Of a DNA stretch of 64,000 bases, positions 32,140 to 48,004 are shown piece after piece. Each line of letters opens with the position of its first letter. Position 1 is the stretch's first letter. Below the pieces are notes generated by a model. It was not told where the DNA came from. It made no database searches and saw nothing but the letters and a program-made list of their open reading frames with translations. The stretch comes from Cognatundibacterium rivi (GTDB lineage: Bacteria > Pseudomonadota > Gammaproteobacteria > Burkholderiales > Burkholderiaceae_D). The stretch covers positions 310,001 to 374,000 of the forward strand of contig NZ_JAGSPK010000004.1 of the NCBI RefSeq assembly GCF_018139565.1, given 5' to 3'. The position numbers and the translations under genes are program-made.

Positions 32140-32218
32140 GTTCTGTCCCGTAAAATACACATACTCCCCCCTTAAAATGGCGTTTTACCCTTAATCTCCT
32201 TATAGATATTGGGCTGCC

Positions 32219-32243: not shown

Positions 32244-32277
32244 TCATCGATTTATGCCCTCCTGGCCGGAAAACATC

Positions 32278-33141: not shown

Positions 33142-33295
33142 GCCCTCACACCTTCGGTTCATTTTTTGAACCGCTGCATGGCCGCAGCCGGTATCCTCGC
33201 TGCGCTGAAAACGGTAAAATGCTGCTTTTAACTTTACCCGCATACTGGTGCGGCTTCTGCCACAGGCAGGCGCTGCACGTGGTGCAATTCATCTC

Positions 33296-34696
33296 ATGAC
33301 TGTCGTCCGTACCCGTTTTGCTCCCAGCCCGACTGGCTATCTTCACGTTGGCGGTGCCCGTACCGCTTTGTTCAGCTGGGCGTTTGCGCGCCATCATGGC
33401 GGCACTTTTGTCTTGCGCATTGAAGATACCGATCTTGAACGCTCCACGCCAGAAGCGGTGCAGGCGATTCTGGACGGCATGAACTGGCTTGGTCTGCAGC
33501 ATGATGAAGGTCCGTTTTATCAGATGCAGCGCATGGAACGCTATCGTTCAGTCCTGGCGGAAATGCTGGCCAATGGCACAGCCTATTATTGCTATTCCTC
33601 ACCCGAAGAAGTCGAGGCGATGCGTGAGCGTCAGCGTGCAGCTGGCGATAAGCCGCGTTACGACGGTACATGGCGTCCGGAAGCCGGTAAAACGCTGCCA
33701 GCGATACCGGCAGACCGTAAGCCAGTGATCCGTTTTAAAAATCCGCTGGATGGCGAAGTCAGCTGGAATGACGTCGTCAAGGGAACGATCACGATCAGCA
33801 ATAAAGAGCTGGACGATCTGGTCATTGCACGTCCAGATGGCACGCCAACTTATAATTTCTGCGTCGCAGTGGATGACTGGGATATGCAGATTACCCACGT
33901 CATTCGTGGCGATGACCATGTGAATAACACACCGCGTCAGATCAATATTCTGAATGCGCTCGGTGCGACGCTGCCGCAATACGGGCATGTTCCTATGATT
34001 CTGGGCACGGATGGACAAAAGTTGTCCAAGCGCCGCGATGCCGTCAGCGTGATGGATTACTTCGACAAGGGTTACCTTCCAGAGGCCATGCTGAACTATC
34101 TGGCGCGCCTGGGCTGGAGTCACGGCGATGACGAATTGTTCTCTATGGAGCAAATGTGCAGCTGGTTTGATCTGACCCATTTATCCGGTTCGGCGGCGCA
34201 GTTTAATCCTGAAAAACTGGCCTGGATTAATAACCACTACATCAAAGCCGCTGATAATCAGCGTCTTGCTGATTTAATTCGTCCGCAGATGGAAAAAGAT
34301 GGCGCCGTGTTTGCTAATGCACCAGCCTTAACGGCCGTGATCGCCTTGCTGAAAGAGCGCGCGAATACCACGGTAGAGCTGGGGCAGGCAGCGATGCTGT
34401 TTTATCGCCAGCCAGCGGCGGATGCTGCTTTGTTGACACAGCATGTGACTACTGCAGTAACGCCAGCATTGCGCCAATACGCGGAAGCTTGCAAAACAGT
34501 CGAATGGAATAAAGCCGCGTTGTCTGCTGCGCTGAAACAGGTGCTGGCAGATCATGCGCTGAAGATGCCGCAACTCGCGATGCCATTACGTTTGCTGTTA
34601 ACCGGGCAGTTGCAGACGCCATCAATTGATGCCGTTGTCGAATTGTTTGGTCGCGAAGTTGTTTTGCAGCGTCTTGCTGTGATCGCTGCTGATTAA
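33296..34696 (+). CDS. gltX: Glutamyl-tRNA synthetase
   Basis: ATG 33296 gives 466 residues, the normal length; an in-frame upstream start at 33248 adds 16 unrelated residues. The class I motifs are [20 protein letters not shown] (HIGH variant HVGG) and [15 protein letters not shown] (KMSKS variant KLSKR). It charges tRNA-Glu in the cytoplasm. It stands directly upstream of the tRNA-Ala and three tRNA-Glu genes, so an enzyme and its substrate RNA are neighbours. Confidence 0.96.
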
Positions 34697-34720
34697 TCGA
34701 TAGTGAGAGTGGGTGAGGGC

Positions 34721-34749
34721 TTTACAATAAAGCGTTCATCCCCTATAAT
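34721..34749 (+). promoter_or_regulatory. Sigma70-type promoter for the tRNA-Ala/tRNA-Glu cluster
   Basis: TTTACA (34721-34726) and TATAAT (34744-34749) are spaced by 17 nt, and the tRNA-Ala begins 20 nt after the -10 box. Near-consensus quality fits a stable-RNA promoter. Confidence 0.75.
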
Positions 34750-34768
34750 CTCGCTTCTATTCTGTGTC

Positions 34769-34844
<76 letters not shown>

Positions 34845-34891
34845 AAAAGTGCACTGCCACCAGGCAGTATGCGAAACAGAAGATACTTGCT

Positions 34892-34967
34892 GTCCCCATC
34901 GTCTAGAGGCCTAGGACATCACCCTTTCACGGTGAGTACAGGGGTTCGAATCCCCTTGGGGACGCCA
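34892..34967 (+). tRNA. tRNA-Glu(UUC), copy 1
   Basis: A 76-nt gene with acceptor GTCCCCA/TGGGGAC, anticodon loop CTTTCAC giving UUC, T-loop TTCGAAT and encoded CCA. Identical to the next two copies. Confidence 0.97.
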
Positions 34968-35012
34968 ATAAATTTAATCGTGTTTATTGTGGGCAGCAAG
35001 TAAAGCAGTACA

Positions 35013-35036
35013 AGGTCAGTAACAAGGACAGAATAT
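35013..35036 (+). repeat. 24-nt direct repeat before tRNA-Glu copy 2
   Basis: The 24 nt immediately before copy 2 recur exactly before copy 3 (35147-35170), but not before copy 1. Together with the tRNA they form a duplicated unit spaced 134 nt, evidence of tandem duplication. Confidence 0.9.
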
Positions 35037-35112
35037 GTCCCCATCGTCTAGAGGCCTAGGACATCACCCTTTCACGGTGAGTACAGGGGTTCGAATCCCC
35101 TTGGGGACGCCA
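35037..35112 (+). tRNA. tRNA-Glu(UUC), copy 2
   Basis: Same 76-nt sequence as copy 1, starting 145 nt further along, with encoded CCA at 35110-35112. Confidence 0.97.
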
Positions 35113-35146
35113 GCTTTAAATCCACTTGCTGTTGTCAGGTAAGTGC

Positions 35147-35170
35147 AGGTCAGTAACAAGGACAGAATAT
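35147..35170 (+). repeat. 24-nt direct repeat before tRNA-Glu copy 3
   Basis: Exact copy of 35013-35036, directly abutting the tRNA. Confidence 0.9.
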
Positions 35171-35246
35171 GTCCCCATCGTCTAGAGGCCTAGGACATCA
35201 CCCTTTCACGGTGAGTACAGGGGTTCGAATCCCCTTGGGGACGCCA
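35171..35246 (+). tRNA. tRNA-Glu(UUC), copy 3
   Basis: Same 76-nt sequence as copies 1 and 2. It is the last gene before the accessory region that contains the restriction operon. Confidence 0.97.
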
Positions 35247-35300
35247 GGTTGATATGAGTGATTAATTTTAATGCGGAATTAATTGCTTCTATAAAAAATA

Positions 35301-35349
35301 AACCGAGGTACATCGACGAGATCCATCGTTCGTGTACCTCGGTTTTTTT
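35301..35349 (+). terminator. Terminator of the tRNA cluster
   Basis: A perfect 12-bp stem (35301-35312 with 35333-35344), a 20-nt loop and then a T run. It ends the tRNA-Ala/tRNA-Glu transcript. Confidence 0.85.
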
Positions 35350-35589
35350 ATGCTCGAATAAAAAGTGCGGCTATACGAAGTTTCAACACTTCATCGATGC
35401 CTCGCTGTGACTTAGCCTAATCATCAACAATCGACAACAAACGGCTGGTTCCGTTGCAGTCGTCCCATCCCCTCCGATGCGCATTGTCACTTCAAGAAAA
35501 ATCTACATTGAAGTTAGCATACGCGCGATTTAAACGTAGCAAAAAAGTCGTCACACGCCATCTCTGTTAATTCAACGAGAATATTGAGC
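35350..35589. other. Non-coding stretch at the tRNA/accessory region junction
   Basis: No supported gene. No copy of the tRNA-Glu 3' end (an attachment-site remnant) is seen here or at the far side of the accessory region. The only structured element between the last tRNA and the small frame at 35590 is the terminator ending at 35349. Confidence 0.5.
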
Positions 35590-35817
35590 GTGCACGACTA
35601 TCGCTCGCTAATCCCAGAAGAGCTGGTTGAGCACAAATCGCTGATTCACGAGGGCGCCACCCAGAGTGCTGCCATATTTTATGCGAAAGGCATGACGCCG
35701 TTTGATGATGACGTTGCTTTTTCTGAGGCGGACGGGCTGCTTATTAGCCCAAGGTGGTCCCATTTTGAGCGTTTTAGAATTGGCATGATGTCTGCTCAAA
35801 GATGTTCAGACGACTAA
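35590..35817 (+). CDS. Small hypothetical protein (uncertain)
   Basis: A possible 75-residue protein from GTG 35590 with GAGAA about 7 nt upstream; a TTG at 35584 is also in frame. The sequence is soluble, mildly acidic and of normal composition (SLIPEELVEHKSLIHEGATQ, later LLISPRWSHFERFRIGMMSA). A good Rho-independent terminator begins 4 nt after its stop, which supports a short transcribed unit. I recognise no family. Another frame on the minus strand (35608-35799) overlaps it but lacks such support. It could be a small accessory-region gene or a remnant. Confidence 0.4.
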   Translation: MHDYRSLIPEELVEHKSLIHEGATQSAAIFYAKGMTPFDDDVAFSEADGLLISPRWSHFERFRIGMMSAQRCSDD

Positions 35818-35820
35818 ATA

Positions 35821-35855
35821 AAAAAGATCCAGCAGTAATATTGCTGGGTCTTTTT
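35821..35855 (+). terminator. Terminator after the small hypothetical gene
   Basis: A 14-bp stem with one G-U pair (35821-35834 with 35842-35855), 7-nt loop, ending in T5. It insulates the restriction operon from upstream transcription; the operon's own promoter should lie in 35856-36098, where I see no convincing consensus pair. Confidence 0.75.
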
Positions 35856-36098
35856 GCAATTTAAATCTCTACGATATATAAGTCAGCTTAAGTCTTTTTA
35901 TTTGAAAACTCAGCGCAGATAAACCTGGTGCATCTGGCTAGATGGCAAATCCCCGGTGTTTTTTATAAATCAATGCTAGGTAATGATAATTCGTGTTCTG
36001 ATTTGTGGTCTGATCGTCTATGATTATCAGCTTATAAATGACATGCACTTATCTCTGTGCGGGCATTGCTGAAAACCCTGCTGTGACGGAAGAATCAG

Positions 36099-37790
36099 AT
36101 GACAGATCAACACGAACAAGAATTTCTCAATAACTTAGAAAAAAAACTCTGGACCAGCGCCAATAAATTACTGCCCTCGCTCGACGCCGCCCAATACAAG
36201 CATGTGATGTTGGGCTTGGTATTTTTGAAGTATGTGTCGGATGCCTTTGATATTCGCCGCGATGAATTGCGCGCGCAGTTTGCCAACCCAGACCATGAAT
36301 ATTTTCTCGATCCTGCCGACTTCGATGGTGGCGCCGAAGGCGAAGACTATCAAGCGGAAGTGGCTGTCGAATTGGAAGTGCGCGACTACTACTTAGAAAC
36401 CAATACCTTCTGGGTGCCGCCCGTGGCGCGTTGGCAGTTTTTGCGTGACAACAATAAAGTCGTGATTGGTGGTGCTGAACTGCCCGTGCACATCAAAGGC
36501 GAGACCAAGCACATTAAGATTAGCTCGATTGGGCATCTGATTGATTACGCACTCGAAGCGATTGAGATTGATAATCAAAAGCTCAAAGGTGTTCTCAACA
36601 AGCGCTATACCCAACTGCAAATTGATCAAGCCAAACTCGGTGAGTTAATCGACTTGATTTCTACAATCCCTTTCAAACACGAATCGCTATCAAGCAAAGA
36701 TATTCTCGGCCATGTGTACGAATACTTCCTCGGCCAATTCGCTTTAGCCGAAGGTAAAAAAGGCGGGCAGTTCTACACGCCGAAAGCCATTGTCAGCCTC
36801 ATCGTGCAAATGCTCGAACCCTACAAAGGCCGCGTGTATGACCCTGCTATGGGCTCGGGTGGTTTCTTTGTGCAGTCAGAACAATTCATCACCGCCCACA
36901 AAGGCAAGATTGGCGATGTCTCCATCTACGGCCAAGAATACAACCACACCACCTGGCAGCTCGCTGCCATGAACATGGCAATTCGCGGTATCGATTTTAA
37001 TTTTGGTAAAGAGCCCGCCAACACCTACACCAACGATCAGCATCCCGACTTGCGTGCCGATTTTGTGATGGCCAATCCGCCCTTCAACATGAAGGAATGG
37101 GATAGCGGCGTCGATGATAATGACCCGCGCTGGGTCTACGGTCGCCCACCATCAGGCAATGCCAACTACGCGTGGTTGCAGCACATGCTTTACCACCTCG
37201 CTCCCAATGGCAGCATGGGTTTGTTGCTGGCCAATGGCTCCATGAGTTCAAACACCAGCGGTGAAGGCGATATTCGCAAAGCTTTAGTTGAAAACGATTT
37301 GGTCGAATGTATGGTGGCCTTACCAGGACAACTCTTCACCAACACACAAATCCCCGCTTGTATTTGGTTCCTCACAAAAAACAAAAACGCCCGCACCGCA
37401 GCCAGTGGCCGTCAACTCATCGACCGCAGAAACAAAGTGCTCTTCATCGACGCTCGCAATCTCGGCTATATGAAAGACCGCGTCCTGCGCGACTTCACGC
37501 AAGAAGATCTCAACAAAATTTGCGATGTCTACCACGCATGGCAAACAGGTAAAGACTACGCAGATCAAAAAGGATTTTGTTCTAGCGCGAATCTAGCAGA
37601 CATACAAAAACACGACTACGTACTGACTCCAGGACGTTATATCGGTGCGAAAGATGTGGCGGATGATGGCGAAGCTTTTGCCGACAAAATGGCGCGTTTG
37701 ACTGCGCGGTTGAAAATGCAGTTTGAAGACAGTGATCGTTTGGAAGTGGAGATTAAGAAGAACTTGGCGGGGTTGGGTTATGAGTTCTGA
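36099..37790 (+). CDS. hsdM: Type I restriction-modification methyltransferase subunit HsdM
   Basis: The 563-residue protein starts at ATG 36099 with GGAAG upstream. The HsdM N-terminal helical domain (about 10-150) is followed by the N6-adenine methyltransferase domain: GQFYTPKAIVSLIV, the SAM-binding motif DPAMGSGGFFVQSE (about 248-261) and the catalytic NPPF motif at about 326-329 in FVMANPPFNMKEWD. With HsdS it methylates adenine within a bipartite site; with HsdR it forms the restriction enzyme. Its 3' end overlaps hsdS by 11 nt (ATGAGTTCTGA), so translation is coupled. Confidence 0.95.
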   Translation: MTDQHEQEFLNNLEKKLWTSANKLLPSLDAAQYKHVMLGLVFLKYVSDAFDIRRDELRAQFANPDHEYFLDPADFDGGAEGEDYQAEVAVELEVRDYYLETNTFWVPPVARWQFLRDNNKVVIGGAELPVHIKGETKHIKISSIGHLIDYALEAIEIDNQKLKGVLNKRYTQLQIDQAKLGELIDLISTIPFKHESLSSKDILGHVYEYFLGQFALAEGKKGGQFYTPKAIVSLIVQMLEPYKGRVYDPAMGSGGFFVQSEQFITAHKGKIGDVSIYGQEYNHTTWQLAAMNMAIRGIDFNFGKEPANTYTNDQHPDLRADFVMANPPFNMKEWDSGVDDNDPRWVYGRPPSGNANYAWLQHMLYHLAPNGSMGLLLANGSMSSNTSGEGDIRKALVENDLVECMVALPGQLFTNTQIPACIWFLTKNKNARTAASGRQLIDRRNKVLFIDARNLGYMKDRVLRDFTQEDLNKICDVYHAWQTGKDYADQKGFCSSANLADIQKHDYVLTPGRYIGAKDVADDGEAFADKMARLTARLKMQFEDSDRLEVEIKKNLAGLGYEF

Positions 37791-39192
37791 GTGGAAAGAA
37801 ATGACCTTAGGTGACGTTACCCAATGGCATTCCGGTGGAACACCAAAGAAAGACGTTGCCAAATATTGGAATGGAGATATTCCTTGGATTTCAGCAAATT
37901 CAATGCATGGAACAAGATTCTATGATTCTGAACTCAAAATTACTTCTGATGGCTTAAATAACGGATCTCGATTAGCGAGCAAGGATTCTGTTCTGTTGTT
38001 GGTACGAGGAGGTGCATTGCATAACCGTCTGCCCGTCGGCATCGCAATGAGAGATGTCGCATTTAATCAAGATGTGAAATCATTAGTTGCCGATCCAAAA
38101 ATTCTTTCGTCATGGTACTTGTTGTATTGGCTTGTTGGAAACGAAAGATACTTACTGGACTCAATTGTTGAAGAAACTGGTATCGGTGCAGGTAAATTGG
38201 ATACGAAAAGAATGCAATCGCTCCCAATTCGTATTCCTACGATATCCACTCAGAATCAAATTGTGAAAGTGTTTAAAAGTATCGATGACAAAATCGAACT
38301 CAACCGCCAAGCCAACCAAACCCTAGAACAAATCGCACAAGCCCTCTTCAAAAGCTGGTTTGTCGATTTCGAACCCACACGCGCCAAGATCGCCGCCAAA
38401 GAAGCGGGCGCATCGCCTAAAGAAATCGAACGCGCCGCCATGTGCGCCATCAGCGGCAAAACCCCAGACCAACTAACCCAACTACCACCAGAAACCCAAC
38501 AAAACCTAAAAACCACCGCAGCCCTATTCCCAGATGCTTTGGTGGATTCGGCATTGGGGAATGTGCCAGAGGGATGGGAGGTCAAAGAAGTAAAACAGTT
38601 AGCGGAAAAAATTTCCAAAGGAACGACACCGACTAAATCTGATGAAGCTACTGCGCGAGACGAGAAAACCATTCCTTTTTTGAAGGTACGAGACATCTCT
38701 GATCTAGGTGAAGTTTCAAGAACGGATTTAGATAAAATTTCTGAATCTGTCCACACAGGCTCCCTGAAGCGTTCTATTTTATTGACTAATGATTTGCTTT
38801 TTTCGATCGCTGGTACGATTGGGCGAGTCGCACTAGTTGAGGAAGATTTAAACAACAGCAACTGCAATCAAGCACTCGCCTATATTCGACTGAAAGAAAC
38901 CGATAAGCATTTGGAACTATGTCGACTCTATTTGAGGAGTCCAATGATTCAAGAGGAAGTTGCTTCGAAAGTCGTTCAAGGTGTACAGGCTAACTTTAGC
39001 CTTACGGCACTTGGTGAGATTAAACTTCTGATTCTAAATAATGTTTTGTTAGAAGTTTTTGAAGTTCAAGTTGGTACGCTTTGTAAACAACAACGTATTC
39101 TGAGTGCCCAGAGTAGGCGCTTAGCTGAAATGCGCGACACGTTGTTACCAAAGTTGCTGTCTGGGGAAATAGAGGTGTCGAATGTCGATTGA
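37780..39192 (+). CDS. hsdS: Type I restriction specificity subunit HsdS
   Basis: Starts at ATG 37780 inside the hsdM stop and encodes 470 residues. It has two target-recognition domains (about 5-155 and 265-405), each opening with a W/EW...LG segment and each followed by a conserved helical spacer: KSIDDKIELNRQANQTLEQI after the first, and QQRILSAQSRRLAEMRDTLLPKLLSGEI after the second. This sets the bipartite DNA site. The central conserved block is compositionally very different from the recognition domains: 38461-38520 has only three G and three T in 60 nt. That mosaic fits exchange of recognition domains by recombination. Its stop overlaps the SIR2 gene by 11 nt. Confidence 0.93.
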   Translation: MSSEWKEMTLGDVTQWHSGGTPKKDVAKYWNGDIPWISANSMHGTRFYDSELKITSDGLNNGSRLASKDSVLLLVRGGALHNRLPVGIAMRDVAFNQDVKSLVADPKILSSWYLLYWLVGNERYLLDSIVEETGIGAGKLDTKRMQSLPIRIPTISTQNQIVKVFKSIDDKIELNRQANQTLEQIAQALFKSWFVDFEPTRAKIAAKEAGASPKEIERAAMCAISGKTPDQLTQLPPETQQNLKTTAALFPDALVDSALGNVPEGWEVKEVKQLAEKISKGTTPTKSDEATARDEKTIPFLKVRDISDLGEVSRTDLDKISESVHTGSLKRSILLTNDLLFSIAGTIGRVALVEEDLNNSNCNQALAYIRLKETDKHLELCRLYLRSPMIQEEVASKVVQGVQANFSLTALGEIKLLILNNVLLEVFEVQVGTLCKQQRILSAQSRRLAEMRDTLLPKLLSGEIEVSNVD

Positions 39193-40345
39193 AAAAGTAA
39201 AAAAGAGCACTGAGTTAATTGAAACGGTCGAACGTTTTTTACAAACAGGGTACGAGGCAAATCAACAGTTCAATGAAGCAATTGATGGCGAAGAGCCACT
39301 TATAGTCAGAAGCATTAAGGAACCTGACAATGAATATCGCTACGACGCCAGCGAAATTCTTTACTGGGTTGATCGAAATGCTTACTGGGATGAATTCGAT
39401 AGTTGGAATGGCGAGCAAATCAAAGACAAGTATTCGGTTTGCATTAAATTTATTAAGGAAACTGACCAAGCTGCGGTTTTTCTAGATCTTGTCGCGCTTA
39501 TTCGCAAGAAAAAAATTGCGCCATTTTTGGGGGCTGGCGTTTCTCGCGCTGCGGGATACCCATTATGGGGCGAAGCCTTGCAATCACTTTGCAAAAAAAT
39601 CACCAGTATTGACGAGACTACTTTTCAAGCGCTACTTAAGGACACCAAATATCTAGAGGCGGCACAAGCCATCGCAGATGCCTCACAGGTTCAGTTAAAT
39701 AACTATGTCCAAACTACGTTTCGTACTAAGTTTGAAAACGAAGAGGATCGTGAGCAGATTCCACGAATATTTAAACACCTTTACAGACTCGCTAACGGCT
39801 GCATCATTACCACCAATTTTGATCCGCTTATTGAAGAGACGTTTAAATTGAAAGGCGCTCCGTTGACCGACGCATATATGTATGGTCTGCAAGCGGGCAA
39901 TAATTTTGTCCAAAGACTGCTAAAGGGTGATCGCTGCATCTTGAAGTTACATGGCGATGCAAGTCAATCTTCGTCTTATGTATTTACAGCAGAGCAGTAT
40001 CAAAACGCTTACGGCGATCCTATCGATTTTAGTAAGCAACTGCCCCGCGCTTTACGCCAAATTTATATTTCAAATTCTTTGCTTTTTCTAGGTTGCTCAT
40101 TAAATCAAGATAAAACGCTTGAGCTATTTCAGCAGGTAAAAACGAGTGCAGAGTTCGATATACCTGAGCATTTCGCGTTCTTACCTGACACTAATGAACC
40201 GTCCGAAAGACAAGCTACCGAGGAACGATTGTTGATGTTGAACATTCGTCCAATCTGGTACTCTAGCGACAATTACCATGCATTGCTTCCGTTGCTTGTT
40301 GAGTTAGCGATTGATATCTCTGAGCATCGCCTGAACCTCAAATAA
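39182..40345 (+). CDS. SIR2-domain protein within the restriction operon
   Basis: The 387-residue protein starts at ATG 39182, overlapping the hsdS stop by 11 nt (ATGTCGATTGA). Residues 1-105 form an acidic N-terminal region with no family I recognise. Residues 110-320 are a SIR2_2-type domain: IAPFLGAGVSRAAGYPLWG with GAG at 117-119, CIITTNFDPLIEE with N212 and D214, KLHGDA with the catalytic His257, and LLFLGCSLNQDKT. The residues that in bacterial defence sirtuins bind and cleave NAD+ are therefore all present. Such domains act as abortive-infection NADases. Here it sits between hsdS and hsdR, so it may be triggered through the restriction complex; that is inference. Confidence 0.85.
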   Translation: MSIEKVKKSTELIETVERFLQTGYEANQQFNEAIDGEEPLIVRSIKEPDNEYRYDASEILYWVDRNAYWDEFDSWNGEQIKDKYSVCIKFIKETDQAAVFLDLVALIRKKKIAPFLGAGVSRAAGYPLWGEALQSLCKKITSIDETTFQALLKDTKYLEAAQAIADASQVQLNNYVQTTFRTKFENEEDREQIPRIFKHLYRLANGCIITTNFDPLIEETFKLKGAPLTDAYMYGLQAGNNFVQRLLKGDRCILKLHGDASQSSSYVFTAEQYQNAYGDPIDFSKQLPRALRQIYISNSLLFLGCSLNQDKTLELFQQVKTSAEFDIPEHFAFLPDTNEPSERQATEERLLMLNIRPIWYSSDNYHALLPLLVELAIDISEHRLNLK

Positions 40346-40367
40346 ACAGAATTAAAGACCGAACGTT

Positions 40368-42284
40368 ATGCTTGAACTTAACTCCTTAACCGATATTGCC
40401 GCTTTGCGCGAAAGCGTAGATATCGAATGCAAACTCGCCCAGGGTCGTGATGGCAAAGGCGGTTTACCGAATGATCTCTGGGAGACTTACAGCGCATTTG
40501 CGAATACTTCTGGTGGCGACATTTTTTTGGGATTAAAGGAAAATAAAGATCTTAGTTTTGATCTGCGCGGTGTAGAAAATGCAGAAAAGGTACTAGAAGA
40601 TTTTTGGAATAACCTAAACAATCCTCAGAAAGTAAGCGCTAACCTGTTACGTGACGCCATGGTCAAGGTGATCACGATTGAAGGAATGCGCCTGATACAC
40701 ATTCACGTGCCACAAGCGAGTCGTCAGCAGAAACCCGTTTTCGTCAATAATAATCCTCTGACAGGAACATTTAAGCGCTTAGGCAGTGGCGATATGAAAT
40801 TGCAGCGCGATGCTGTGAGTCGTCTTTTGGCGGAGCAGAGTGAAGAGAGCCGCGACGCAGAGATTTTGGTGGGCTATTCGATTGAGGATCTTGATCTCGA
40901 TAGTTTACGCGTCTACCGAAATATGTACAGTACTCGTGCGCCTGATCATCCTTGGAACAAGGTCGATAATCAGGAATTTCTTAAACAAATTGCTGCATGG
41001 AGAAAAGATCGTGTCTCTGGGGTAAGTGGCATTACGAGGGCTGGTCTGCTAATGTTTGGACAATACCAACCGATTCAAGAGGCTTTTCCAAACTACATGG
41101 TCGACTATCAGGAAAGACCAGAGGCGAAGACGGAAGCGCGTTGGATAGATCGGATCGTTCCGGATGGTACATGGTCTGGGAATGTTTTTGACTTCTATCA
41201 GAAGGTTATTCGTAAGCTGACCGCTGACTTAAAGGTACCCTTTGTACTTGAAGGAGATCAGCGTCAAGACGATACTTTGGTGCACAAAGCCCTGCGCGAA
41301 GCATTAGTTAATACTTTAATTCACGCTGATTATTCCGGTCGTGCTTCAATTCTAATTGTCAAACGGCCTGACATGTTTGGCTTTCGTAATCCAGGCCTGA
41401 TGCGCATTTCAATTGAGACTGCTGTTAAAGGTAGTGAGAGCGACTGCAGGAATCGTATTCTACAAAACCTATTTCGCTTCGTCGGTTTAGGCGAAAATGC
41501 AGGTTCAGGATTGCCGAAGATTTTCGATGGCTGGAAGAGCCAGCATTGGCGGCAGCCTCTACTCAAGGAAAAAACAGTTCCCAATGATCAAACGCTACTA
41601 GAGTTACATGCCCTTAGTTTAATCCCTGAAAAGACAATTCAATTCTTGAGGAAGTCGATAGGTTCAGCTGAATTTGATTCATTGAATGAGACAGAGCGAC
41701 TTGTTTTAGCCACGGCACACATTGAAAGCACGGTCGATCACCGCCGATTGATGCAGGTACTGGATATTCACCCAAAGGATCTATCTGCTACCTTTAGCGG
41801 CTTGATTGAACGAGGGTATCTTTTGCAGGATGGTGCGGGGCGAGGAACGATTTATTTCCTTGCTTCCGCTCGGCTCAATGATGATATTAAGGAAATTTTT
41901 GGCGATGACTTCTTTGATGACCCTAAGGAAACATTGAGCGGCACAGGATCGAGTGATAGCTCTGGGGGTTTGAACCTTAACTCTGGGGGTTTGAGTGATA
42001 GCTCTGGGGGGGGCGTACTTAAGCGAGTTGCCGAACCGGTTGCATCTAAGAAGAAAGTGTCGAGAGAGATTGTTGTAAAGACGATCCTTGAGCTTTGTCA
42101 AGATAGGGCCTGCACTCTAGAGGAATTGGCGTCACTACTTAATAGATCCACAAACGTGATCCGAAAAGACTATCTCCAACCGATGTTAAAAGCGAAATTG
42201 TTGCTCTATAAGTATCCAACCAAACCAAATCACCCAGATCAAGCATATCGGACTGTCAAAGAAGAGCTGGCAAATGATCACTGA
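40368..42284 (+). CDS. AlbA_2 (Schlafen-like) and ATPase-domain protein, RecG-related (COG2865 type)
   Basis: Encodes 638 residues, 22 nt after the SIR2 gene. Residues 10-135 are an AlbA_2/Schlafen-type domain (VDIECKLAQGRDGKGGLPND, then SAFANTSGGDIFLGLKENKD, with VFVNNNPLTGTFKRLGSGD). Residues 300-400 are a GHKL/HATPase_c_4-type domain (REALVNTLIHADYSG, FGFRNPGLM, GLGENAGSGLPKIF). A Ser/Gly linker (about 525-549) is followed by a C-terminal winged helix (about 565-635). Proteins of this build are annotated as putative transcriptional regulators or helicases and recur beside type I restriction genes; their activity is not established. The linker is encoded by a tandem repeat with a G8 tract. 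The stop overlaps hsdR by 11 nt. Confidence 0.8.
   Translation: MLELNSLTDIAALRESVDIECKLAQGRDGKGGLPNDLWETYSAFANTSGGDIFLGLKENKDLSFDLRGVENAEKVLEDFWNNLNNPQKVSANLLRDAMVKVITIEGMRLIHIHVPQASRQQKPVFVNNNPLTGTFKRLGSGDMKLQRDAVSRLLAEQSEESRDAEILVGYSIEDLDLDSLRVYRNMYSTRAPDHPWNKVDNQEFLKQIAAWRKDRVSGVSGITRAGLLMFGQYQPIQEAFPNYMVDYQERPEAKTEARWIDRIVPDGTWSGNVFDFYQKVIRKLTADLKVPFVLEGDQRQDDTLVHKALREALVNTLIHADYSGRASILIVKRPDMFGFRNPGLMRISIETAVKGSESDCRNRILQNLFRFVGLGENAGSGLPKIFDGWKSQHWRQPLLKEKTVPNDQTLLELHALSLIPEKTIQFLRKSIGSAEFDSLNETERLVLATAHIESTVDHRRLMQVLDIHPKDLSATFSGLIERGYLLQDGAGRGTIYFLASARLNDDIKEIFGDDFFDDPKETLSGTGSSDSSGGLNLNSGGLSDSSGGGVLKRVAEPVASKKKVSREIVVKTILELCQDRACTLEELASLLNRSTNVIRKDYLQPMLKAKLLLYKYPTKPNHPDQAYRTVKEELANDH
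41951..42013 (+). repeat. 42-bp tandem duplication ending in a G8 tract inside the AlbA_2 gene
   Basis: An 18-nt block beginning GAGTGATAGC starts at 41951 and again at 41993, 42 nt (14 codons) apart. A further CTCTGGGGG copy lies at 41981-41989. The second unit ends in eight consecutive G (42006-42013). It codes for the Ser/Gly linker. The in-frame unit length permits length change, and the G tract could slip out of frame. Confidence 0.85.
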
Positions 42285-45200
42285 AGAGCAACTAGAACAA
42301 CTCTGCCTGAACTGGTTTCAAGAAATCGGTTATGACTATGTCTGCGGTTATGACATTGCACCTGATGGTGTTAGCCCTGAGCGTGCTGATTATCGTCAGA
42401 TTATTTTGCCAGCACGTTTATTTTCGGCTCTTCAAAAAATCAATCCACAAATTCCCGTCGCCACACTAGAACAAGTCGCGCTGCACATCGCTAAGCCGGA
42501 AACGCCGATCCTGATCAAGAATAACAAAGCTTTTCATCAGCTTTTGCTGGAAGGCGTGAAGGTGGAATTTAAATCGCAGGAAGTTGATGCCAACGGCAAT
42601 GCTGAGAGCAAGATCGACTATGTGCAATTGATTGATTTTGCCAATGTTCGTAATAATGAATTTTTGGTCGTCAATCAATATTCTTTGGCTGGCAGCAAAG
42701 GTAATCGTCGCCCTGATGTGTTGGTGTTTATTAACGGCATTCCGCTCGCAGTGTTGGAGCTGAAAAATCCCGCCGATCAAAACGCCGATATCTGGCAAGC
42801 GTTTCAGCAGATACAAACCTATAAAGAAGAAATTCCCGATCTGTTTATTTTTAATGAAGCGGTGGTGGTGAGCGATGGTTTGATTGCGCGGGTGGGTTCA
42901 CTGACTTCTAACAAAGAACGTTTTTTACCTTGGCGCACGGTGGCGAATGAGCATGATAAGCCGCTGTTTGAATTTCATTTAGAGACTTTGGTGAAGGGCT
43001 TTTTTAAACCCGATTTATTCCTTGATTACATCCGCTATTTCATTTTGTTTGAACAAGATGACGACAATATCATTAAGAAAATTGCGGGCTATCATCAGTT
43101 TCATGCCGTGCGCGAGGCGGTGCGTGCGACCGTGATTGCGGCACAGCGTCCCGATGGGCGCAGCATTGCTCAACCGCGTGCCAATTACGCCAATGAGGTG
43201 GTGGCGGGATCAGGTAAAGCGGGCGTGGTGTGGCATACGCAAGGTTCGGGTAAGTCGATTTCTATGCTGTGTTATGCGGCGAAACTGCTGGCGCAGCCTG
43301 AGATGAATAATCCGACCATCGTGGTGGTGACCGATAGAAATGATCTGGACGGTCAACTCTACAATACCTTTTGCATGGCGCAAGAAGCGCTGAAGCAAAC
43401 GCCAGTGCAAGCGGGTGATCGTGATGATTTGCGTGAATTACTCAGTTCACGTCAGGCAGGCGGCATTATTTTTACGACGGTGCAAAAGTTCGCATTGCTG
43501 GGTGAGGAAAGCGCGCATCCGGTTTTATCGACGCGCCATAACATTGTCGTGGTCAGCGATGAAGCGCATCGTAGTCAATATGGCGACAAAGCAAAATTCA
43601 ATACCAAAACAGGACAATACACCTTTGGCTATTCCAGGCACATGCACGATGCATTGCCGGAAGCGTCGTTCATCGGCTTTACAGGCACACCAATTGATTC
43701 TGCTGACAAAGACACTAAGGCGGTGTTTGGTGACTATGTTTCTATCTACGATATTCAAGATGCGGTGGATGATGGCGCAACAGTGCCTATCTATTACGAA
43801 TCACGTCTCGCAAAACTCGATATCAATCAGAATGAGATAGAAACACTGAATGAAGAAGTCGATGAAGTCATCGAAGATGAGGAAGATGTCGCCACGCGTG
43901 AAAGCACCAAGTCGCAATGGGCGGCCTTAGAAAAATTGGTCGGTAGCGAACCACGCATGCAGCAAGTCGGTAAAGACTTGGTCGCGCATTTTGAAAGCCG
44001 CATCGCCAGCATGCCGGGCAAAGCCATGATCGTCTGTATGAGCCGTGAAATCTGCGTCGATATGTATGACGCGATCGTGGCGATCAAACCAGAATGGCAC
44101 GATGCAGACCCAACCAAAGGCGCGATTAAAATTGTGATGACGGGGACTGCGTCCGACAAATCAAAACTGCAGCCACACATTTACAACAAAGACACCAAAA
44201 AGCTGTTTGAGAAACGCTTTAAAGATGTGAACGATCCTCTGCAATTAGTGATCGTGTGCGATATGTGGCTGACAGGTTTTGATGCACCCAATTGCCATAC
44301 GATGTACATCGATAAACCGATGAAAGGGCATAACCTGATGCAAGCCATCGCGCGGGTGAATCGCGTATTCAAAGATAAACCGGGCGGTTTGGTGGTGGAC
44401 TATATCGGTATCGCCAGCGAGCTCAAAAAAGCGCTATCGACGTATACGAATTCGCAAGGTAAGGGCAAGCCAACCCACGATACACATGAAGCCTATGCAA
44501 TCTTGCTAGAGAAGATGGAAGTGGTCCACGCCATGTTCCATGGCTTTGATTACAGTCAGTTTGAAACCAAGGCCTTGCAACTTTTGCCGGGTGCGATGAA
44601 CCATTTATTGGGCTTGAAAGGCGCTAATGGCGAGCTTGATGGTAAGAAGCGCTTTCTTGACGTGATGGCGGCCCTGAGTAAGGCATATACCCTATGCAGT
44701 ACGCTCGATGAAGTGAATCCGATCAAAAAGGAAATTGCCTTCTTAAGCGCGGTAAAGCATGCGATTACGAAGTTCACGACGATTGATAAGCGACGTACAG
44801 ATGAAGAACGGAATAGTGCGCTGAAACAAATCATCGACAATGCCATCATCGCCGATGGCGTGGACGATATCTTTAAAATGGTGGGCTTGGATAAACCGAA
44901 TATCGGCCTGTTATCACCTGAATTTTTGGACGACGTTGCCAATCTGCCGCAGAAAAACCTTGCGGTAGAGTTGCTGGAAAAATTGCTACGCGACGAAGTG
45001 AAGGCGCGCATGAAAACCGATGTGGTCTCCGAGAAAAAATACTCAGATCGCATTTTGGAAACACTACGCAAATACCACAATCGCGCCATCGAAACGGCGC
45101 AGGTCGTCGAAGAGATGATCCAGATGGCTAAAGATATGGCGCTCGATGCAGAGCAAGCCGCCAAGCTGGGCCTCAACGCAGACGAGATCGCGTTCTATCG

Positions 45201-45456
45201 CGCCTTAATTCAAAACGAATCGGCAGTGCGCGAGCTTGGCGATAGCAATCTACGTGATTTAGCAAAACACGTTACCGAACAACTACGCGCTTCAACCACA
45301 GTCGACTGGCAAGTACGCGACAGTGTACGCGCCAAGCTACGCAATCTAGTCCGCCGCGCACTCAGAAAATGGAAGTACCCACCAGACAAAGCAGACGAAG
45401 CAATCGAGCTGTGCTTGAAGCAGGCCGAGGTGTTGAGTCATGGGTGGAGTAGTTAG
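42274..45456 (+). CDS. hsdR: Type I restriction endonuclease subunit HsdR
   Basis: The 1060-residue protein starts at ATG 42274 inside the stop of the preceding gene (ATGATCACTGA). The N-terminal PD-(D/E)XK nuclease is visible as RRPDVLVFINGIPLAVLELKN near residues 145-165. The SF2 motor follows: Walker A in WHTQGSGKSISM (about 320), TVVVTDRNDLDGQL-like motif, the DEAH box in SDEAHRSQYG (about 428), TGTP in IGFTGTPID, and motif VI-like MQAIARVNRVF. The C-terminal 330 residues are helical and contact the HsdMS core. It translocates DNA and cuts unmethylated invading DNA. It appears intact, last gene of the operon. Confidence 0.95.
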   Translation: MITEEQLEQLCLNWFQEIGYDYVCGYDIAPDGVSPERADYRQIILPARLFSALQKINPQIPVATLEQVALHIAKPETPILIKNNKAFHQLLLEGVKVEFKSQEVDANGNAESKIDYVQLIDFANVRNNEFLVVNQYSLAGSKGNRRPDVLVFINGIPLAVLELKNPADQNADIWQAFQQIQTYKEEIPDLFIFNEAVVVSDGLIARVGSLTSNKERFLPWRTVANEHDKPLFEFHLETLVKGFFKPDLFLDYIRYFILFEQDDDNIIKKIAGYHQFHAVREAVRATVIAAQRPDGRSIAQPRANYANEVVAGSGKAGVVWHTQGSGKSISMLCYAAKLLAQPEMNNPTIVVVTDRNDLDGQLYNTFCMAQEALKQTPVQAGDRDDLRELLSSRQAGGIIFTTVQKFALLGEESAHPVLSTRHNIVVVSDEAHRSQYGDKAKFNTKTGQYTFGYSRHMHDALPEASFIGFTGTPIDSADKDTKAVFGDYVSIYDIQDAVDDGATVPIYYESRLAKLDINQNEIETLNEEVDEVIEDEEDVATRESTKSQWAALEKLVGSEPRMQQVGKDLVAHFESRIASMPGKAMIVCMSREICVDMYDAIVAIKPEWHDADPTKGAIKIVMTGTASDKSKLQPHIYNKDTKKLFEKRFKDVNDPLQLVIVCDMWLTGFDAPNCHTMYIDKPMKGHNLMQAIARVNRVFKDKPGGLVVDYIGIASELKKALSTYTNSQGKGKPTHDTHEAYAILLEKMEVVHAMFHGFDYSQFETKALQLLPGAMNHLLGLKGANGELDGKKRFLDVMAALSKAYTLCSTLDEVNPIKKEIAFLSAVKHAITKFTTIDKRRTDEERNSALKQIIDNAIIADGVDDIFKMVGLDKPNIGLLSPEFLDDVANLPQKNLAVELLEKLLRDEVKARMKTDVVSEKKYSDRILETLRKYHNRAIETAQVVEEMIQMAKDMALDAEQAAKLGLNADEIAFYRALIQNESAVRELGDSNLRDLAKHVTEQLRASTTVDWQVRDSVRAKLRNLVRRALRKWKYPPDKADEAIELCLKQAEVLSHGWSS

Positions 45457-45914
45457 TATGTGTGAAGTGTAATTTACATTGCGCTCTGAGAAAGCTTTGG
45501 AGCGGACAGTGTGTTTTGAATCTTATGTAAATTTTAGGTAGTATTAGCTTACTCATCTTTAATGGACGGAATGAGGTGATTAAATCGACTTCATGTCTAT
45601 TTGACGGACAAGAAATTCAAATTTCAGATGTCTTAAACTTGAGAGCAGCTAAAAAGATGGCCTGTGCGACGATGTGCTCCTGACAGTGTAGTTTGCAGTG
45701 AATGCACTGATTCAGTCTTAAGTCTTTGAGTATTCAGCCACATTCCTGCGCTAGCGATAAGTTTCCCTCTTGATAAAACAATCTTTGCGTAGTTCGATGA
45801 ATTGTCTGGGGTAGTTCTATTGATGTATATCATGCGCAATCTCGCGCCATTAAAATCGTCTGTGCAGTATTGAGAATTTTGCCGTGAAGCTATCTGGAAA
45901 AAAGGAGATGAGCG
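45457..45914. other. 458-nt gene-free stretch after the restriction operon
   Basis: AT-rich compared with the flanks, with no frame that has both a start signal and normal protein composition. I found no tRNA remnant, inverted terminal repeat or clear terminator. It probably holds the 3' end of the hsdR transcript and the promoter of the chemoreceptor gene; AAAGGAG (45900-45906) is the latter's ribosome-binding site. Confidence 0.5.
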
Positions 45915-47516
45915 ATGCACGCATTTGCGAATTTAAAGATAGGCGTTCGTTTATCGATTGGTTTTGGTATTTTGATTTTAATGACACTGGGCATGGGTGG
46001 CACGGGGCTGCAACGTTTTGCGGAAGTGAATACCGTAAATAGCAGAATCATTGAAAAGGATTGGGTAAAAGCCGAAGCGGCGAATGTTATTAACGCCACT
46101 ACCCGTGCCAATGCGCGGAATACGATGGAGTTACTGATTGCGGATGACGCCACTCAGGCGAGCAGAGTTAAGCAATCGATTGAGTCGAATAAACAGATCA
46201 TCAGTGCGGCGTTAGACACTCTGAAACAGCTGATTTATTTACCCGAAGGTCAGGCACTACTGGCGACATTGACCGAACGGCGGACAGCGTATGTCGCTTC
46301 GTTTTCAAAAGTGCTGAAACAGATAGATGCAGGGGACAAAACCGGTGCAATTCAGACGATGAACAGCGAGACATTACCGGCCTTGGATGCATTGCAAGAA
46401 CCCATCGTTGCTCTGACAAATTTACAGAAAAAAATTGTCGTCAACAGTAGTGCAGAAGTACGGGATCGTATTGCCTCGGCCACAGCATTGCTGATCGTGC
46501 TGACGGTTGCAGGTTTATTCGTTGGTGTCGGGTTGACCTGGTTTATTTCTCGCTCGATTACGCGACCGCTCAGTGAGGCTGTGCATATTGCCCGTACCGT
46601 CGCTTCAGGTGATTTGACGACAAAAGCGCAGATCACCACAAAAGATGAGTGTGGTCAGTTATTGCAATCCATGCAGGAAATGAACGACAGCCTTGTACGC
46701 ATCGTAAATCAGGTGCGTGGCGGTGCCGATCTGATGGCTGCCGCAACGCATGAAATTGCAGACGGCAATATGGAGCTTTCTTCTCGTACCGAAGAGCAAG
46801 CCAGTGCGCTTGAGCAAACTGCAGCCTCGATGGAGCAACTGGCGTCTGCGGTGAGAGATAACTTTGAATCAGGCATGCATGCCAACCGGCTTGCCGAATC
46901 AGCGGCTCAGGTAGCTGCCAAAGGTGGTGCTGTCGTCGGTGAAGTCGTGCAGACGATGGAGGCCATCAATATTTCCTCGCGCAAGATTGCGGACATTATT
47001 GGTGTTATTGATGGTATCGCTTTTCAAACCAACATACTGGCGCTCAACGCGGCAGTTGAGGCGGCTCGTGCGGGAGAGCAGGGGCGGGGCTTTGCTGTTG
47101 TGGCATCCGAGGTTCGTTCACTTGCCGGGCGCTCTGCGAACGCAGCGAAGGAAATCAAAACGCTGATTTCTGACTCAGTAGGTAATGTGACTGATGGTTG
47201 TCGGCTGGTGGAACAGGCGGGCAGCACTATGGATGAGATCGTAGTGCATGTGCGTCGTGTGGCGGATCTGATGGGAGAAATTACGACCGCAAGTAAAGAG
47301 CAGACGACTGGCATTGAACAGGTGAATCAGGCTGTCGCACAAATGGATACGGTAACGCAGCAAAATGCCGCATTAGTAGAAGAAGCTGCAGCCGCAACCC
47401 AGTCTCTGGATCATCAGGCAAACTCTTTGGTACACGCTGTCAGTATTTTCAAGTTGGGGATGCCACATTCATCCATTGGTTTCTCACGTGCCTCACCTGT
47501 GTTACTCAACGTTTAA
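45915..47516 (+). CDS. Methyl-accepting chemotaxis protein
   Basis: The 533-residue receptor starts at ATG 45915 behind a strong AAGGAG. A first membrane helix (about 10-30) and a second (about 190-212) enclose a periplasmic four-helix-bundle sensor of about 160 residues. A HAMP domain (about 212-265) and the signalling domain follow, with the highly conserved hairpin tip IDGIAFQTNILALNAAVEAA at about 370-390 and flanking methylation helices (ELSSRTEEQASALEQTAASM). The class is typical of betaproteobacterial Tsr-like receptors; the ligand is unknown. No CheW-binding C-terminal NWETF pentapeptide is seen. The hemerythrin gene follows after 13 nt. Confidence 0.92.
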   Translation: MHAFANLKIGVRLSIGFGILILMTLGMGGTGLQRFAEVNTVNSRIIEKDWVKAEAANVINATTRANARNTMELLIADDATQASRVKQSIESNKQIISAALDTLKQLIYLPEGQALLATLTERRTAYVASFSKVLKQIDAGDKTGAIQTMNSETLPALDALQEPIVALTNLQKKIVVNSSAEVRDRIASATALLIVLTVAGLFVGVGLTWFISRSITRPLSEAVHIARTVASGDLTTKAQITTKDECGQLLQSMQEMNDSLVRIVNQVRGGADLMAAATHEIADGNMELSSRTEEQASALEQTAASMEQLASAVRDNFESGMHANRLAESAAQVAAKGGAVVGEVVQTMEAINISSRKIADIIGVIDGIAFQTNILALNAAVEAARAGEQGRGFAVVASEVRSLAGRSANAAKEIKTLISDSVGNVTDGCRLVEQAGSTMDEIVVHVRRVADLMGEITTASKEQTTGIEQVNQAVAQMDTVTQQNAALVEEAAAATQSLDHQANSLVHAVSIFKLGMPHSSIGFSRASPVLLNV

Positions 47517-47529
47517 TCTGGATACGGAT

Positions 47530-47928
47530 ATGGCATATTTTGAGTGGGCCGACGATATGGTGATCGATAACGGGCCTATTGATGACGATCACAAAAAATT
47601 AGTCAATCTGGTTAATGAGTTGCATACGGCAACCAGCGTCGGGCGTGGCCAGGAGGTCATTGAGGCAATCATGACTGAACTGATCACCTACACAAAAGAT
47701 CATCTTCATCGTGAAGAGCAAGTGATGGCGGCACTGAAGTTTCCAAATCTGGAGCGGCACAAGGCGGGGCATCATCAATTTACGGAACGACTGAATAAAT
47801 TACAGAGTCAGTATGAAGCCGGTAGTATTACCGTAGCGTCGCAGCTTTCATCAGTTTTACGGGATTGGTTATCTTTGCATATCCGCCGTTCCGATAAAGA
47901 AATTAAAGTATATCTGCGAAAGAAGTGA
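47530..47928 (+). CDS. Bacteriohemerythrin
   Basis: ATG 47530 gives 132 residues, the standard length. The di-iron ligands are all in place: His in DDDHKKLVNLVNEL, HLHREEQVM with His and Glu, HKAGHHQF with two His, and LSLHIRRSDKEI with His and Asp. The protein binds O2 reversibly in the cytoplasm and can act as an oxygen store or sensor partner. Its closeness to the chemoreceptor gene (13 nt) suggests one transcript and a possible link of O2 binding to taxis, which is inference. Confidence 0.92.
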   Translation: MAYFEWADDMVIDNGPIDDDHKKLVNLVNELHTATSVGRGQEVIEAIMTELITYTKDHLHREEQVMAALKFPNLERHKAGHHQFTERLNKLQSQYEAGSITVASQLSSVLRDWLSLHIRRSDKEIKVYLRKK

Positions 47929-47953
47929 CAGCTTTCGCCAGCATTTCATCAAT

Positions 47954-47987
47954 AAAAAAGCCCTGTTCTTATCAACAGGGCTTTTTT
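47954..47987. terminator. Bidirectional terminator between bacteriohemerythrin and sbp
   Basis: A perfect 14-bp stem (47954-47967 with 47974-47987), 6-nt loop, A6 on one side and T6 on the other, placed between convergent genes. Confidence 0.9.
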
Positions 47988-48004
47988 AACATATCGTGTT
48001 TTAT

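What the first reader, a model, noticed from the sequence alone, without database searches (positions are those of the whole stretch)
36099..45456. Composite type I restriction operon with embedded SIR2 and AlbA_2/ATPase genes
The order hsdM, hsdS, SIR2 protein, AlbA_2/GHKL protein, hsdR forms one unidirectional block with overlaps or a 22-nt gap at every junction. Two genes that are not needed for restriction sit inside the core set instead of beside it. A plausible reading is a layered system: restriction first, then NAD+ depletion by the SIR2 protein if restriction fails or the complex is inhibited, with the AlbA_2 protein as sensor or regulator. Gene identities are read from motifs; the joint function is inference.
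Basis: partly seen in the sequence, partly recalled or inferred. Interest (0 to 1): 0.72.

Follow-up and report, generated by a model that had tools for sequence, protein, structure and literature searches.

The report
Restriction operon with embedded NADase gene
A bacterial DNA-restriction operon carries, in a gap where related operons nearly always carry some swappable extra gene, a probable NAD-destroying suicide enzyme whose close relatives were all found beside such restriction genes.

Summary
In detail: hsdM, hsdS, SIR2_2, AlbA_2/GHKL-type and hsdR genes form one co-directional block with three 11-nt overlaps and one 22-nt gap. It is a mobile 10.5-kb insert beside tRNA-Glu; one same-genus genome has the empty site. 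It is less exceptional than it looks: in this HsdR family the hsdS-hsdR gap is a cargo slot, at least 300 bp wide in 32 of 33 loci where both genes were seen, often holding effector or abortive-infection families (Fic, TIR, Abi_C, PIN, DUF3800 and others). All 12 relatives of the SIR2 protein above my search cut-offs lie in type I loci (10 between hsdS and hsdR, 2 after hsdS in another order); 0 of 5 weaker SIR2 matches opened do. Catalytic residues are invariant in the 12. AlbA_2 looks like a separable second cassette, so the proposed sensor-effector trio is probably not a unit. Best reading: a PrrC-like NADase effector coupled to the restriction complex. Coupling is inferred, not shown; independent action (as for TgvAB) is a strong rival. 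A paper of 2012 already links Sir2 enzymes to type I systems, so this is a new member of a known kind.

The parts
36099..37790 (+). hsdM, type I DNA N6-adenine methyltransferase (563 aa)
   Evidence: Pfam N6_Mtase 3.8e-112, HsdM_N 6.1e-17; NPPF motif
37780..39192 (+). hsdS, specificity subunit; strongly diverged from HsdS of the otherwise 90-94% identical U. amnicola operon
   Evidence: Methylase_S 1.5e-35, 2 stretches; start and 11-nt overlap; 44% identity to L002 HsdS against 90-94% for the other four proteins
39182..40345 (+). SIR2_2-domain protein (387 aa), probable NADase effector, with an N-terminal extension of about 93 aa
   Evidence: SIR2_2 2.6e-28; PADLOC ThsA 4.9e-22; ThsA, DSR2, KomC by profile and fold; N212, H257 and GAGxS invariant in 12 of 12 type I-linked relatives
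40368..42284 (+). AlbA_2 (Schlafen-type) + HATPase_c_4 (GHKL-like) + C-terminal winged-helix-type protein (638 aa); separable second cassette
   Evidence: Pfam; relatives with and without type I genes
42274..45456 (+). hsdR, type I restriction and translocation subunit (1060 aa)
   Evidence: TIGR00348 4.5e-188; HSDR_N, SWI2_SNF2, T1RH-like_C; PD-ELK, GSGKS, DEAH
35250..45763 (.). inserted segment absent from same-genus genome G239, where 255 bp stand in its place; begins just after the third tRNA-Glu gene (ends 35246)
   Evidence: window 30000-35249 and 45764-48601 each match L071 at 92%; tRNA-Glu 35171-35246; no end repeats of 10 bp or more in the stretches compared

Best explanation
The locus is a complete type I restriction-modification operon whose hsdS-hsdR gap, a cargo slot in this HsdR family, holds a SIR2 NADase effector of a subfamily tied to type I loci, plus a separable AlbA_2 cassette. 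Shown by sequence: the slot, the association, intact catalytic residues, purifying selection, repeated cargo exchange. Inferred: the SIR2 protein is kept inactive by or on the M/S/R complex and is switched on when that complex is inhibited or cannot deal with a phage, after which it hydrolyses NAD+ and aborts the infection, as PrrC does with tRNA-Lys at EcoprrI. The roughly 93-residue N-terminal extension is the candidate part for contact with the complex. The AlbA_2 protein is most likely an accessory regulator or a second, independent cargo.
For: Relatives of the SIR2 protein above the cut-offs used (E <= 1e-20, 1e-30; at least 80% of the query in plasmids): 10 lie between hsdS and hsdR (window, L002, L005, L006, L007, L009, L010, L013, L060, L061) and the 2 most divergent directly follow hsdS in the order R-M-S-SIR2 (L014; L074): 12 of 12 in type I loci. 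Five weaker SIR2_2 matches on plasmids opened: 0 of 5 beside annotated type I genes. In the plasmid listing the three type I-linked rows align from query residue 9, 9 and 28, the other 27 rows listed from 63 or later, so the N-terminal part seems to go with the type I setting. HsdR survey: gap S-R >= 300 bp in 32 of 33, M-S in 12 of 32; cargo rich in effector and abortive-infection families. SIR2-bearing HsdRs are scattered among other cargo (7 changes). SIR2 divergence follows HsdR (r 0.94) and HsdM (0.87) more than HsdS (0.48) in 10 loci. A different cargo, FRG, carries an HsdR-type C-terminal segment in L024 and, weakly, in Rhizobium johnstonii L072, both between hsdS and hsdR; that HsdR domain is described as proposed to contact the methyltransferase (PMC5248579, passages). 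dN/dS against L002: SIR2 0.10, AlbA_2 0.06, hsdR 0.05. Precedent PrrC (PMC12707154, PMC3874165, PMC2610378, passages).
Against: No expression, interaction or phage data. SIR2 relatives below the cut-offs were mostly not opened, so exclusivity is shown only for the close family. The SIR2 protein has no HsdR-like tail (best SIR2 hit E 3.5), so the FRG clue does not carry over directly. Its N-terminal extension is less conserved than the core (7 of 93 against 60 of 294 columns at >= 80%), shorter in L007 and L061, and modelled with low confidence (residues 23-76 under pLDDT 50). The correlation with HsdR may reflect only inheritance as one operon, and cargo swapping speaks against a strict lock-and-key fit. 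The embedded TgvAB pair protects with a nuclease-dead HsdR and also when expressed alone, if less strongly against several phages (PMC11411939, passages).
Confidence: 0.5

Rival explanations
1. Independent second layer: SIR2 (and AlbA_2) are co-transcribed with the restriction genes for dosage and joint transfer, but sense phage by their own triggers and need no Hsd protein.
For: TgvAB embedded in the V. cholerae VPI-2 type I cluster protects with a nuclease-dead HsdR (PMC11411939, passages); DarTG2 lies between hsdS and hsdR in EPEC (PMC12255303, abstract and passages); cargo of unrelated kinds swaps on the HsdR tree; SIR2 NADases such as ThsA and DSR2 (fold matches) work without restriction enzymes (recalled).
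Against: The SIR2 family above the cut-offs was not found away from type I genes (12 of 12 linked, two type I classes, always downstream of hsdS); a freely acting effector should also occur alone.
Confidence: 0.3
2. Post-segregational guard: SIR2 is a latent toxin that punishes loss or damage of the restriction operon and so stabilises the mobile segment.
For: The segment is mobile (empty site in G239; relatives on plasmids L005-L007 and on IMG/VR contigs L060, L061), and TA-like families (AbiEii, Fic) occur upstream of hsdR in other loci.
Against: No antitoxin-like partner is constant beside SIR2: it is the only gene between hsdS and hsdR in 5 of 10 loci.
Confidence: 0.1
3. Not a defence effector: SIR2 and AlbA_2 regulate the restriction enzyme (SIR2 as a deacylase, AlbA_2 as a transcription factor) or are passengers.
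For: AlbA_2/HATPase/winged-helix architecture suits a regulator; AlbA_2 is not beside annotated type I genes in 6 of 8 relatives opened.
Against: The best matches of SIR2 are NADases of phage defence in PADLOC, PDB sequence and fold searches; both genes are under purifying selection, which speaks against passengers.
Confidence: 0.1

Closest known systems
PrrC-EcoprrI (type IC R-M with an embedded anticodon nuclease)
   Same: A suicide effector gene embedded in a type I operon; PrrC is described as sequestered in the type I complex and activated when it is inhibited (PMC3874165, PMC12707154, passages).
   Different: Here the effector is a SIR2 NADase-like protein, not a tRNase; control by the Hsd complex is not shown.
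RptR-RMS-DarTG2 island of EPEC
   Same: Toxin genes between hsdS and hsdR; the authors also report an RNA-binding protein/ATPase pair there in four genomes and call the site a potential recombination hotspot (PMC12255303, abstract and passages).
   Different: DarTG2 is an ADP-ribosylating TA pair (recalled); SIR2 does not occur in the main text (0 occurrences).
TgvAB in V. cholerae VPI-2; RloF and other rlo genes of Campylobacter
   Same: Extra defence genes embedded in a type I cluster; RloF lies between hsdR and hsdS (PMC11411939, passages and conclusion; rlo genes also in PMC2610378, passages).
   Different: GmrSD-type proteins (TgvAB, RloF); TgvAB acts without HsdR nuclease activity.
Sir2 genes linked to type I R-M in the immunity-suicide coupling hypothesis (Makarova et al. 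2012)
   Same: States that Sir2-superfamily enzymes are linked to type I R-M systems and that toxins replace each other in R-M loci (PMC3506569, passages).
   Different: I saw no gene family, gap position or counts in the passages; the action proposed then was nuclease or ADP-ribosylation, not NAD+ depletion. The figure was not available to me.
ThsA, DSR2 and KomC SIR2 NADases
   Same: Same SIR2 domain; H257 aligns with KomC H146 by my count along the printed alignment, the residue mutated in PDB 9xvc; best fold hits.
   Different: Other terminal parts and partners; for these three the match starts at about residue 89-104 of the profile.

Membership tests
Type I restriction-modification system | hsdM, hsdS and hsdR genes together, with intact domains and motifs | tested here: met
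   Pfam, PADLOC, NCBIfam and motifs
Type I restriction-modification system | Methylates a bipartite site and restricts unmodified DNA | not testable with these tools
   No methylome or restriction data
Defence-associated SIR2 NADase | SIR2 fold with NAD-binding GAGxS and catalytic N and H | tested here: met
   G117, A118, G119, S121, N212, H257 invariant in 12 of 12; fold hits ThsA, DSR2, KomC on a model of moderate confidence
Defence-associated SIR2 NADase | NAD+ hydrolysis triggered by phage | not testable with these tools
   Needs an assay
Thoeris, DSR1/DSR2, SIR2-HerA, SIR2-pAgo | Characteristic partner (TIR ThsB, HerA, pAgo) or long C-terminal sensor (features recalled) | tested here: not met
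   387-aa protein; none of these partners among the operon genes and the flanking genes scanned; NCBIfam Avs5 and Dsr1 hits far under cut-off
PrrC-like embedded effector of type I R-M | Effector gene inside the type I operon | tested here: met
   Between hsdS and hsdR with an 11-nt overlap; 9 close relatives likewise between hsdS and hsdR
PrrC-like embedded effector of type I R-M | Effector silenced by the Hsd complex and released by an anti-restriction factor | not testable with these tools
   Inferred only
PrrC itself | ATPase plus anticodon-nuclease domains | tested here: not met
   No such Pfam domains in SIR2 or AlbA_2
AlbA_2/HATPase_c_4 proteins (COG2865, name recalled) | SLFN_AlbA_2 followed by HATPase_c_4 and a winged-helix-type end | tested here: met
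   All three Pfam models over cut-off; the AlphaFold model was useless (pLDDT 33)

The most novel reading that the evidence does not exclude
Type I enzymes of this family are a general docking platform: the hsdS-hsdR slot encodes exchangeable suicide effectors (SIR2, TIR, FRG, Fic and others) that bind the M2S core, some with a borrowed HsdR C-terminal tail (FRG), others with their own N-terminal extension (SIR2), so that one DNA-scanning machine drives or restrains many different death responses.
Probability: 0.25. Interest if true: 0.8.

Novelty: new member of a known kind. Interest (0 to 1): 0.5.

Why it matters
If the coupling is real, many ordinary-looking type I restriction operons are two-stage immune systems with interchangeable suicide modules, and annotation as plain restriction-modification misses the second stage. 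The SIR2 family and the FRG-HsdR-tail fusion give concrete, testable pairs for asking how a restriction enzyme talks to an effector, for which PrrC is the worked example I know of.

Tried and rejected
Rejected: (1) that the embedding is a chance or unique event. (2) That SIR2 and AlbA_2 must go together: each occurs in the slot without the other; the SIR2-Schlafen fusions of pAgo operons (PMC6299218) and the PADLOC match speak for a looser link and are not explained. (3) That SIR2 docks by an HsdR-like tail, as the FRG cargo may: no match. (4) A tRNA-targeted element with att repeats: no shared stretch of 10 bp or more between the two ends compared, and no integrase among the genes identified in the insert.

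Led nowhere: AlphaFold of the AlbA_2 protein (pLDDT 33); FRG protein P0004 in 300 genomes of the order: 0 of 300, so the sample evidently did not hold G314, from which it came; E. coli genomes by DNA: 8 of 5426, over the AlbA_2 part, and the one opened is not in a type I locus; 48 genomes of the order of G489: only G489 itself; phage records with the L009 SIR2: no match; viral contigs with P0001: none, but with the profile three, two of them complete type I loci, so carriage by viral or other mobile elements is not excluded; promoter and terminator scan: counts about as in shuffles.

Dropped rows and limits: L062 (SIR2 match of 22 bits, no hsd match in its 16 kb) was left out of the SIR2 count. 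Only 5 of the many weaker plasmid SIR2 matches were opened (four, one), and the plasmid gene table is incomplete by its own description. All 44 HsdR places were fetched (window; L013; 40; 2); 42 entered the gap count, 33 showed both hsdS and hsdR; L063 (hsdR alone on its contig) and L064 (731-aa cargo) were fetched later and did not enter. hsdS was recognised by phmmer with five HsdS queries, so a missed second hsdS could inflate some gaps. The HsdR tree left out L031, L033, L054, L058, L059, L063 and L064. Pfam was run on 32 cargo proteins from 28 survey loci, picked by me as the main cargo; in two of these loci (L021, L040) hsdS was not seen. 3 of 32 had no hit.
Full report
OBSERVATION. The likely hsdS start is the ATG at 37780, so three of the four junctions are 11-nt overlaps and the fourth a 22-nt gap. 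Catalytic motifs of HsdM, HsdR and SIR2 are present (their meaning is recalled).

MOBILITY. In same-genus genome G239 the flanks are syntenic at 92% (window 30000-35249 and 45764-48601), with 255 bp in place of the 10.5-kb segment, which begins just after the third of three tRNA-Glu genes. I found no end repeats in the stretches compared. In U. amnicola, DNA similarity was found only within the operon, not in the flanks held. HsdS is 44% identical between the two while the other four proteins are 90-94%, as expected from exchange of target recognition domains. The operon pair is a mosaic: SIR2 and the start of AlbA_2 are mostly 88-96% identical in DNA, the rest of AlbA_2 73-80%, the first half of hsdR 85-93%, its second half 77-84%, and much of hsdS near 50%. 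SIR2 dS is 0.27 against 0.86-1.43 for hsdM, AlbA_2 and hsdR. The L007-L061 pair also peaks over SIR2 (89-97%; dS 0.31 against 1.10 for hsdR). This suggests exchange by recombination in parts, SIR2 among the recent ones.

THE SIR2 FAMILY. Relatives came from GTDB contigs (1, close relatives only), 399 genomes of the order (3 with a match, own included, E <= 1e-20), 398 of the phylum (3, own included, E <= 1e-30), 369 of the class (2, own included, E <= 1e-20), plasmids (3 of 36 records with 80% or more of the query covered) and viral contigs (3, one dropped as weak). It is rare. Of the 12 distinct loci, window included, 10 have hsdM-hsdS-(x)-SIR2-(y)-hsdR: window, L002, L005, L006, L007, L009, L010, L013, L060, L061. 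The two most divergent, L014 and L074, belong to a different type I class (EcoEI-like HsdR C-terminus in L014, its relative in L074) in the order R-M-S-SIR2. SIR2 directly follows hsdS in 11 of 12; L006 has a 266-aa gene between. Between SIR2 and hsdR there is no gene in 6 of 10 (L005, L006, L007, L009, L013, L061), AlbA_2 in 3 (window, L002, L010) and AbiD/Abi_2 in one (L060). L009 has an AlbA_2-like gene just after hsdR. Five weaker plasmid SIR2 matches were opened and 0 of 5 lie beside annotated type I genes; two stand with TIR proteins. The catalytic residues are invariant in 12 of 12. H257 aligns with KomC H146 by my count, the residue mutated in 9xvc. The AlphaFold model (4 sequences, pLDDT 65) has ThsA and DSR2 as best PDB hits (TM-score about 0.5 on the query); its N-terminal part is unreliable. 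In the plasmid listing (30 of 36 rows shown) the three best rows align from residue 9, 9 and 28, the other 27 from 63 or later, which fits an N-terminal extension specific to the type I-linked group but does not prove it.

THE CARGO SLOT. An HsdR search in 398 genomes of the phylum gave 44 places in 43 genomes (E <= 1e-150). In 33 loci with hsdS and hsdR both seen, 32 have a gap of 300 bp or more; without the window and L013, 30 of 31. Where hsdM was seen too (32 loci) the median S-R gap is 1541.5 bp, the median M-S gap -5.5 bp, and 12 of 32 M-S gaps reach 300 bp. The one closed S-R gap is L029. SIR2 of this family fills the slot in 2 of the 33 (window, L013). Pfam on 32 main cargo proteins from 28 loci found Fic (4), TIR (2), Abi_C (3, one with AbiJ_NTD3), DUF3800 (2), AlbA_2 (3, one fused to GmrSD_N), and once each RhuM, DUF6161, DUF4268, FRG, YobI-ATPase, AAA_13, YhcG, KAP, DUF2326, DUF87, PIN_12, a reverse transcriptase, AbiEii, a weak HSDR_N-like hit and Y1_Tnp; 3 had no hit. 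Several of these are families of unknown function. L064, outside the count, has an AbiLi/AriA-like ATPase.

CARGO EXCHANGE. On an HsdR tree of 45 rows SIR2-bearing loci stand beside loci with other cargo: L009 with L025 (YobI), L005 with L022 (DUF4268), L013 with L026 (TIR), L007/L061 with L039 (Fic), window/L002 with L020/L021 (RhuM; AbiEii). At least 7 changes of SIR2/other are needed, and one clade of all SIR2 loci is rejected (AU p 5e-5); 8 of the 10 SIR2 rows were brought in by SIR2 search, and the test was run after the tree was seen. L010 and L025 share an 89% identical AlbA_2 beside different cargo, and L025 keeps a 90-aa fragment matching the start of HsdR, a likely scar of cassette exchange. 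Within the 10 SIR2 loci, SIR2 divergence follows HsdR (r 0.94) and HsdM (0.87) more than HsdS (0.48); joint inheritance alone could explain this.

A CLUE TO PHYSICAL COUPLING. The FRG-domain cargo of L024 ends in a segment homologous to the C-terminal end of HsdR (Pfam T1RH-like_C 5.4e-13; own tail profile 4e-14 in a search of the cargo set alone). A Rhizobium johnstonii pRL11 FRG protein, 33% identical over 93% of the query, again between hsdS and hsdR, carries a weaker match (2e-5 in the same small set). The C-terminal helical domain of EcoR124I HsdR is described as proposed to contact the methyltransferase (PMC5248579, passages). This makes docking of cargo on the complex plausible in general. 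The SIR2 proteins lack this tail.

ALBA_2. The AlbA_2 protein is separable. Eight relatives outside the SIR2 loci were opened: two lie between hsdS and hsdR with no SIR2 (Pseudoalteromonas), six are not beside annotated type I genes. It is under purifying selection (dN/dS 0.06). Against full independence: SIR2-Schlafen fusions occur in pAgo operons (PMC6299218, passages), and a PADLOC pAgo-associated SIR2 model matches the AlbA_2 protein. I take it as a regulator or second cargo; nothing found here shows that it senses for SIR2.

LITERATURE. Makarova et al. 2012 (PMC3506569, passages) already state that Sir2 enzymes are linked to type I R-M and that toxins displace each other in R-M loci. PrrC is the worked case. 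DarTG2 (PMC12255303) and TgvAB (PMC11411939) are tested embedded systems; TgvAB protects with a nuclease-dead HsdR. No paper of the held library contains SIR2, HsdR and HsdM together; the listings of searches and the passages read showed no study of this SIR2 family and no count of the hsdS-hsdR slot. The library holds open-licence papers only.

MECHANISM. Shown by sequence: complete type I operon, SIR2 with NADase residues, association with type I genes, slot, exchange. Inferred: NAD+ hydrolysis, suicide, and control by the Hsd complex. I favour a PrrC-like guard at 0.5, independent action at 0.3, operon addiction at 0.1, regulation or passenger at 0.1.

VERDICT. A real but less exceptional feature than it looked: a rare SIR2 member of a broad class of cargo-carrying type I operons.

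Noticed in passing
L024:10993-12297 (+) and L072:7962-9227 (+): FRG-domain proteins between hsdS and hsdR that end in an HsdR-type C-terminal segment (weak in L072): a possible methyltransferase-docking fusion.
   Followed up: partly
L040:10365-12494 (+): Single protein with GmrSD_N at the start and AlbA_2 at the end, upstream of hsdR; AlbA_2 fused to a type IV restriction domain.
   Followed up: no
L013:1188-4988 (-): A 1266-aa SIR2_2 protein divergent from and next to hsdM of a locus that also carries the embedded 389-aa SIR2.
   Followed up: no
L045:10379-12484 and L048:9452-11566 (+): A roughly 700-aa family (72% identical to each other) in the hsdS-hsdR slot; L045 has only weak HSDR_N/VRR-nuclease-like matches in its C-terminal third.
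   Followed up: no
L034:6100-6924 (-), L035:9573-10637 (+), L038:11377-12450 (+): Slot proteins without Pfam or PADLOC hits at the cut-offs used; candidates for undescribed effectors.
   Followed up: no
L025:10538-10807 (+): A 90-aa ORF matching residues 14-88 of the same locus's HsdR ORF (67% identity), likely a scar of cassette exchange.
   Followed up: partly
L010:11660-13446 (-): hsdM appears split into two overlapping frames (461 and 260 aa): frameshift or sequencing error.
   Followed up: no
window 35250-36098: Left end of the insert: terminator-like hairpin shortly after tRNA-Glu and a 77-aa ORF (35584-35817) of unknown nature.
   Followed up: partly
L074:9778-10824 (+): Gene after SIR2 has a DGGGLRG motif near its start, reminiscent of patatin-like phospholipases (recalled, not tested), in an R-M-S-SIR2 locus.
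   Followed up: no
L006:2025-3335 (+): Annotated antiviral reverse transcriptase Drt2 upstream of the SIR2-bearing type I operon on Photobacterium plasmid pPHDD1: a defence cluster.
   Followed up: no
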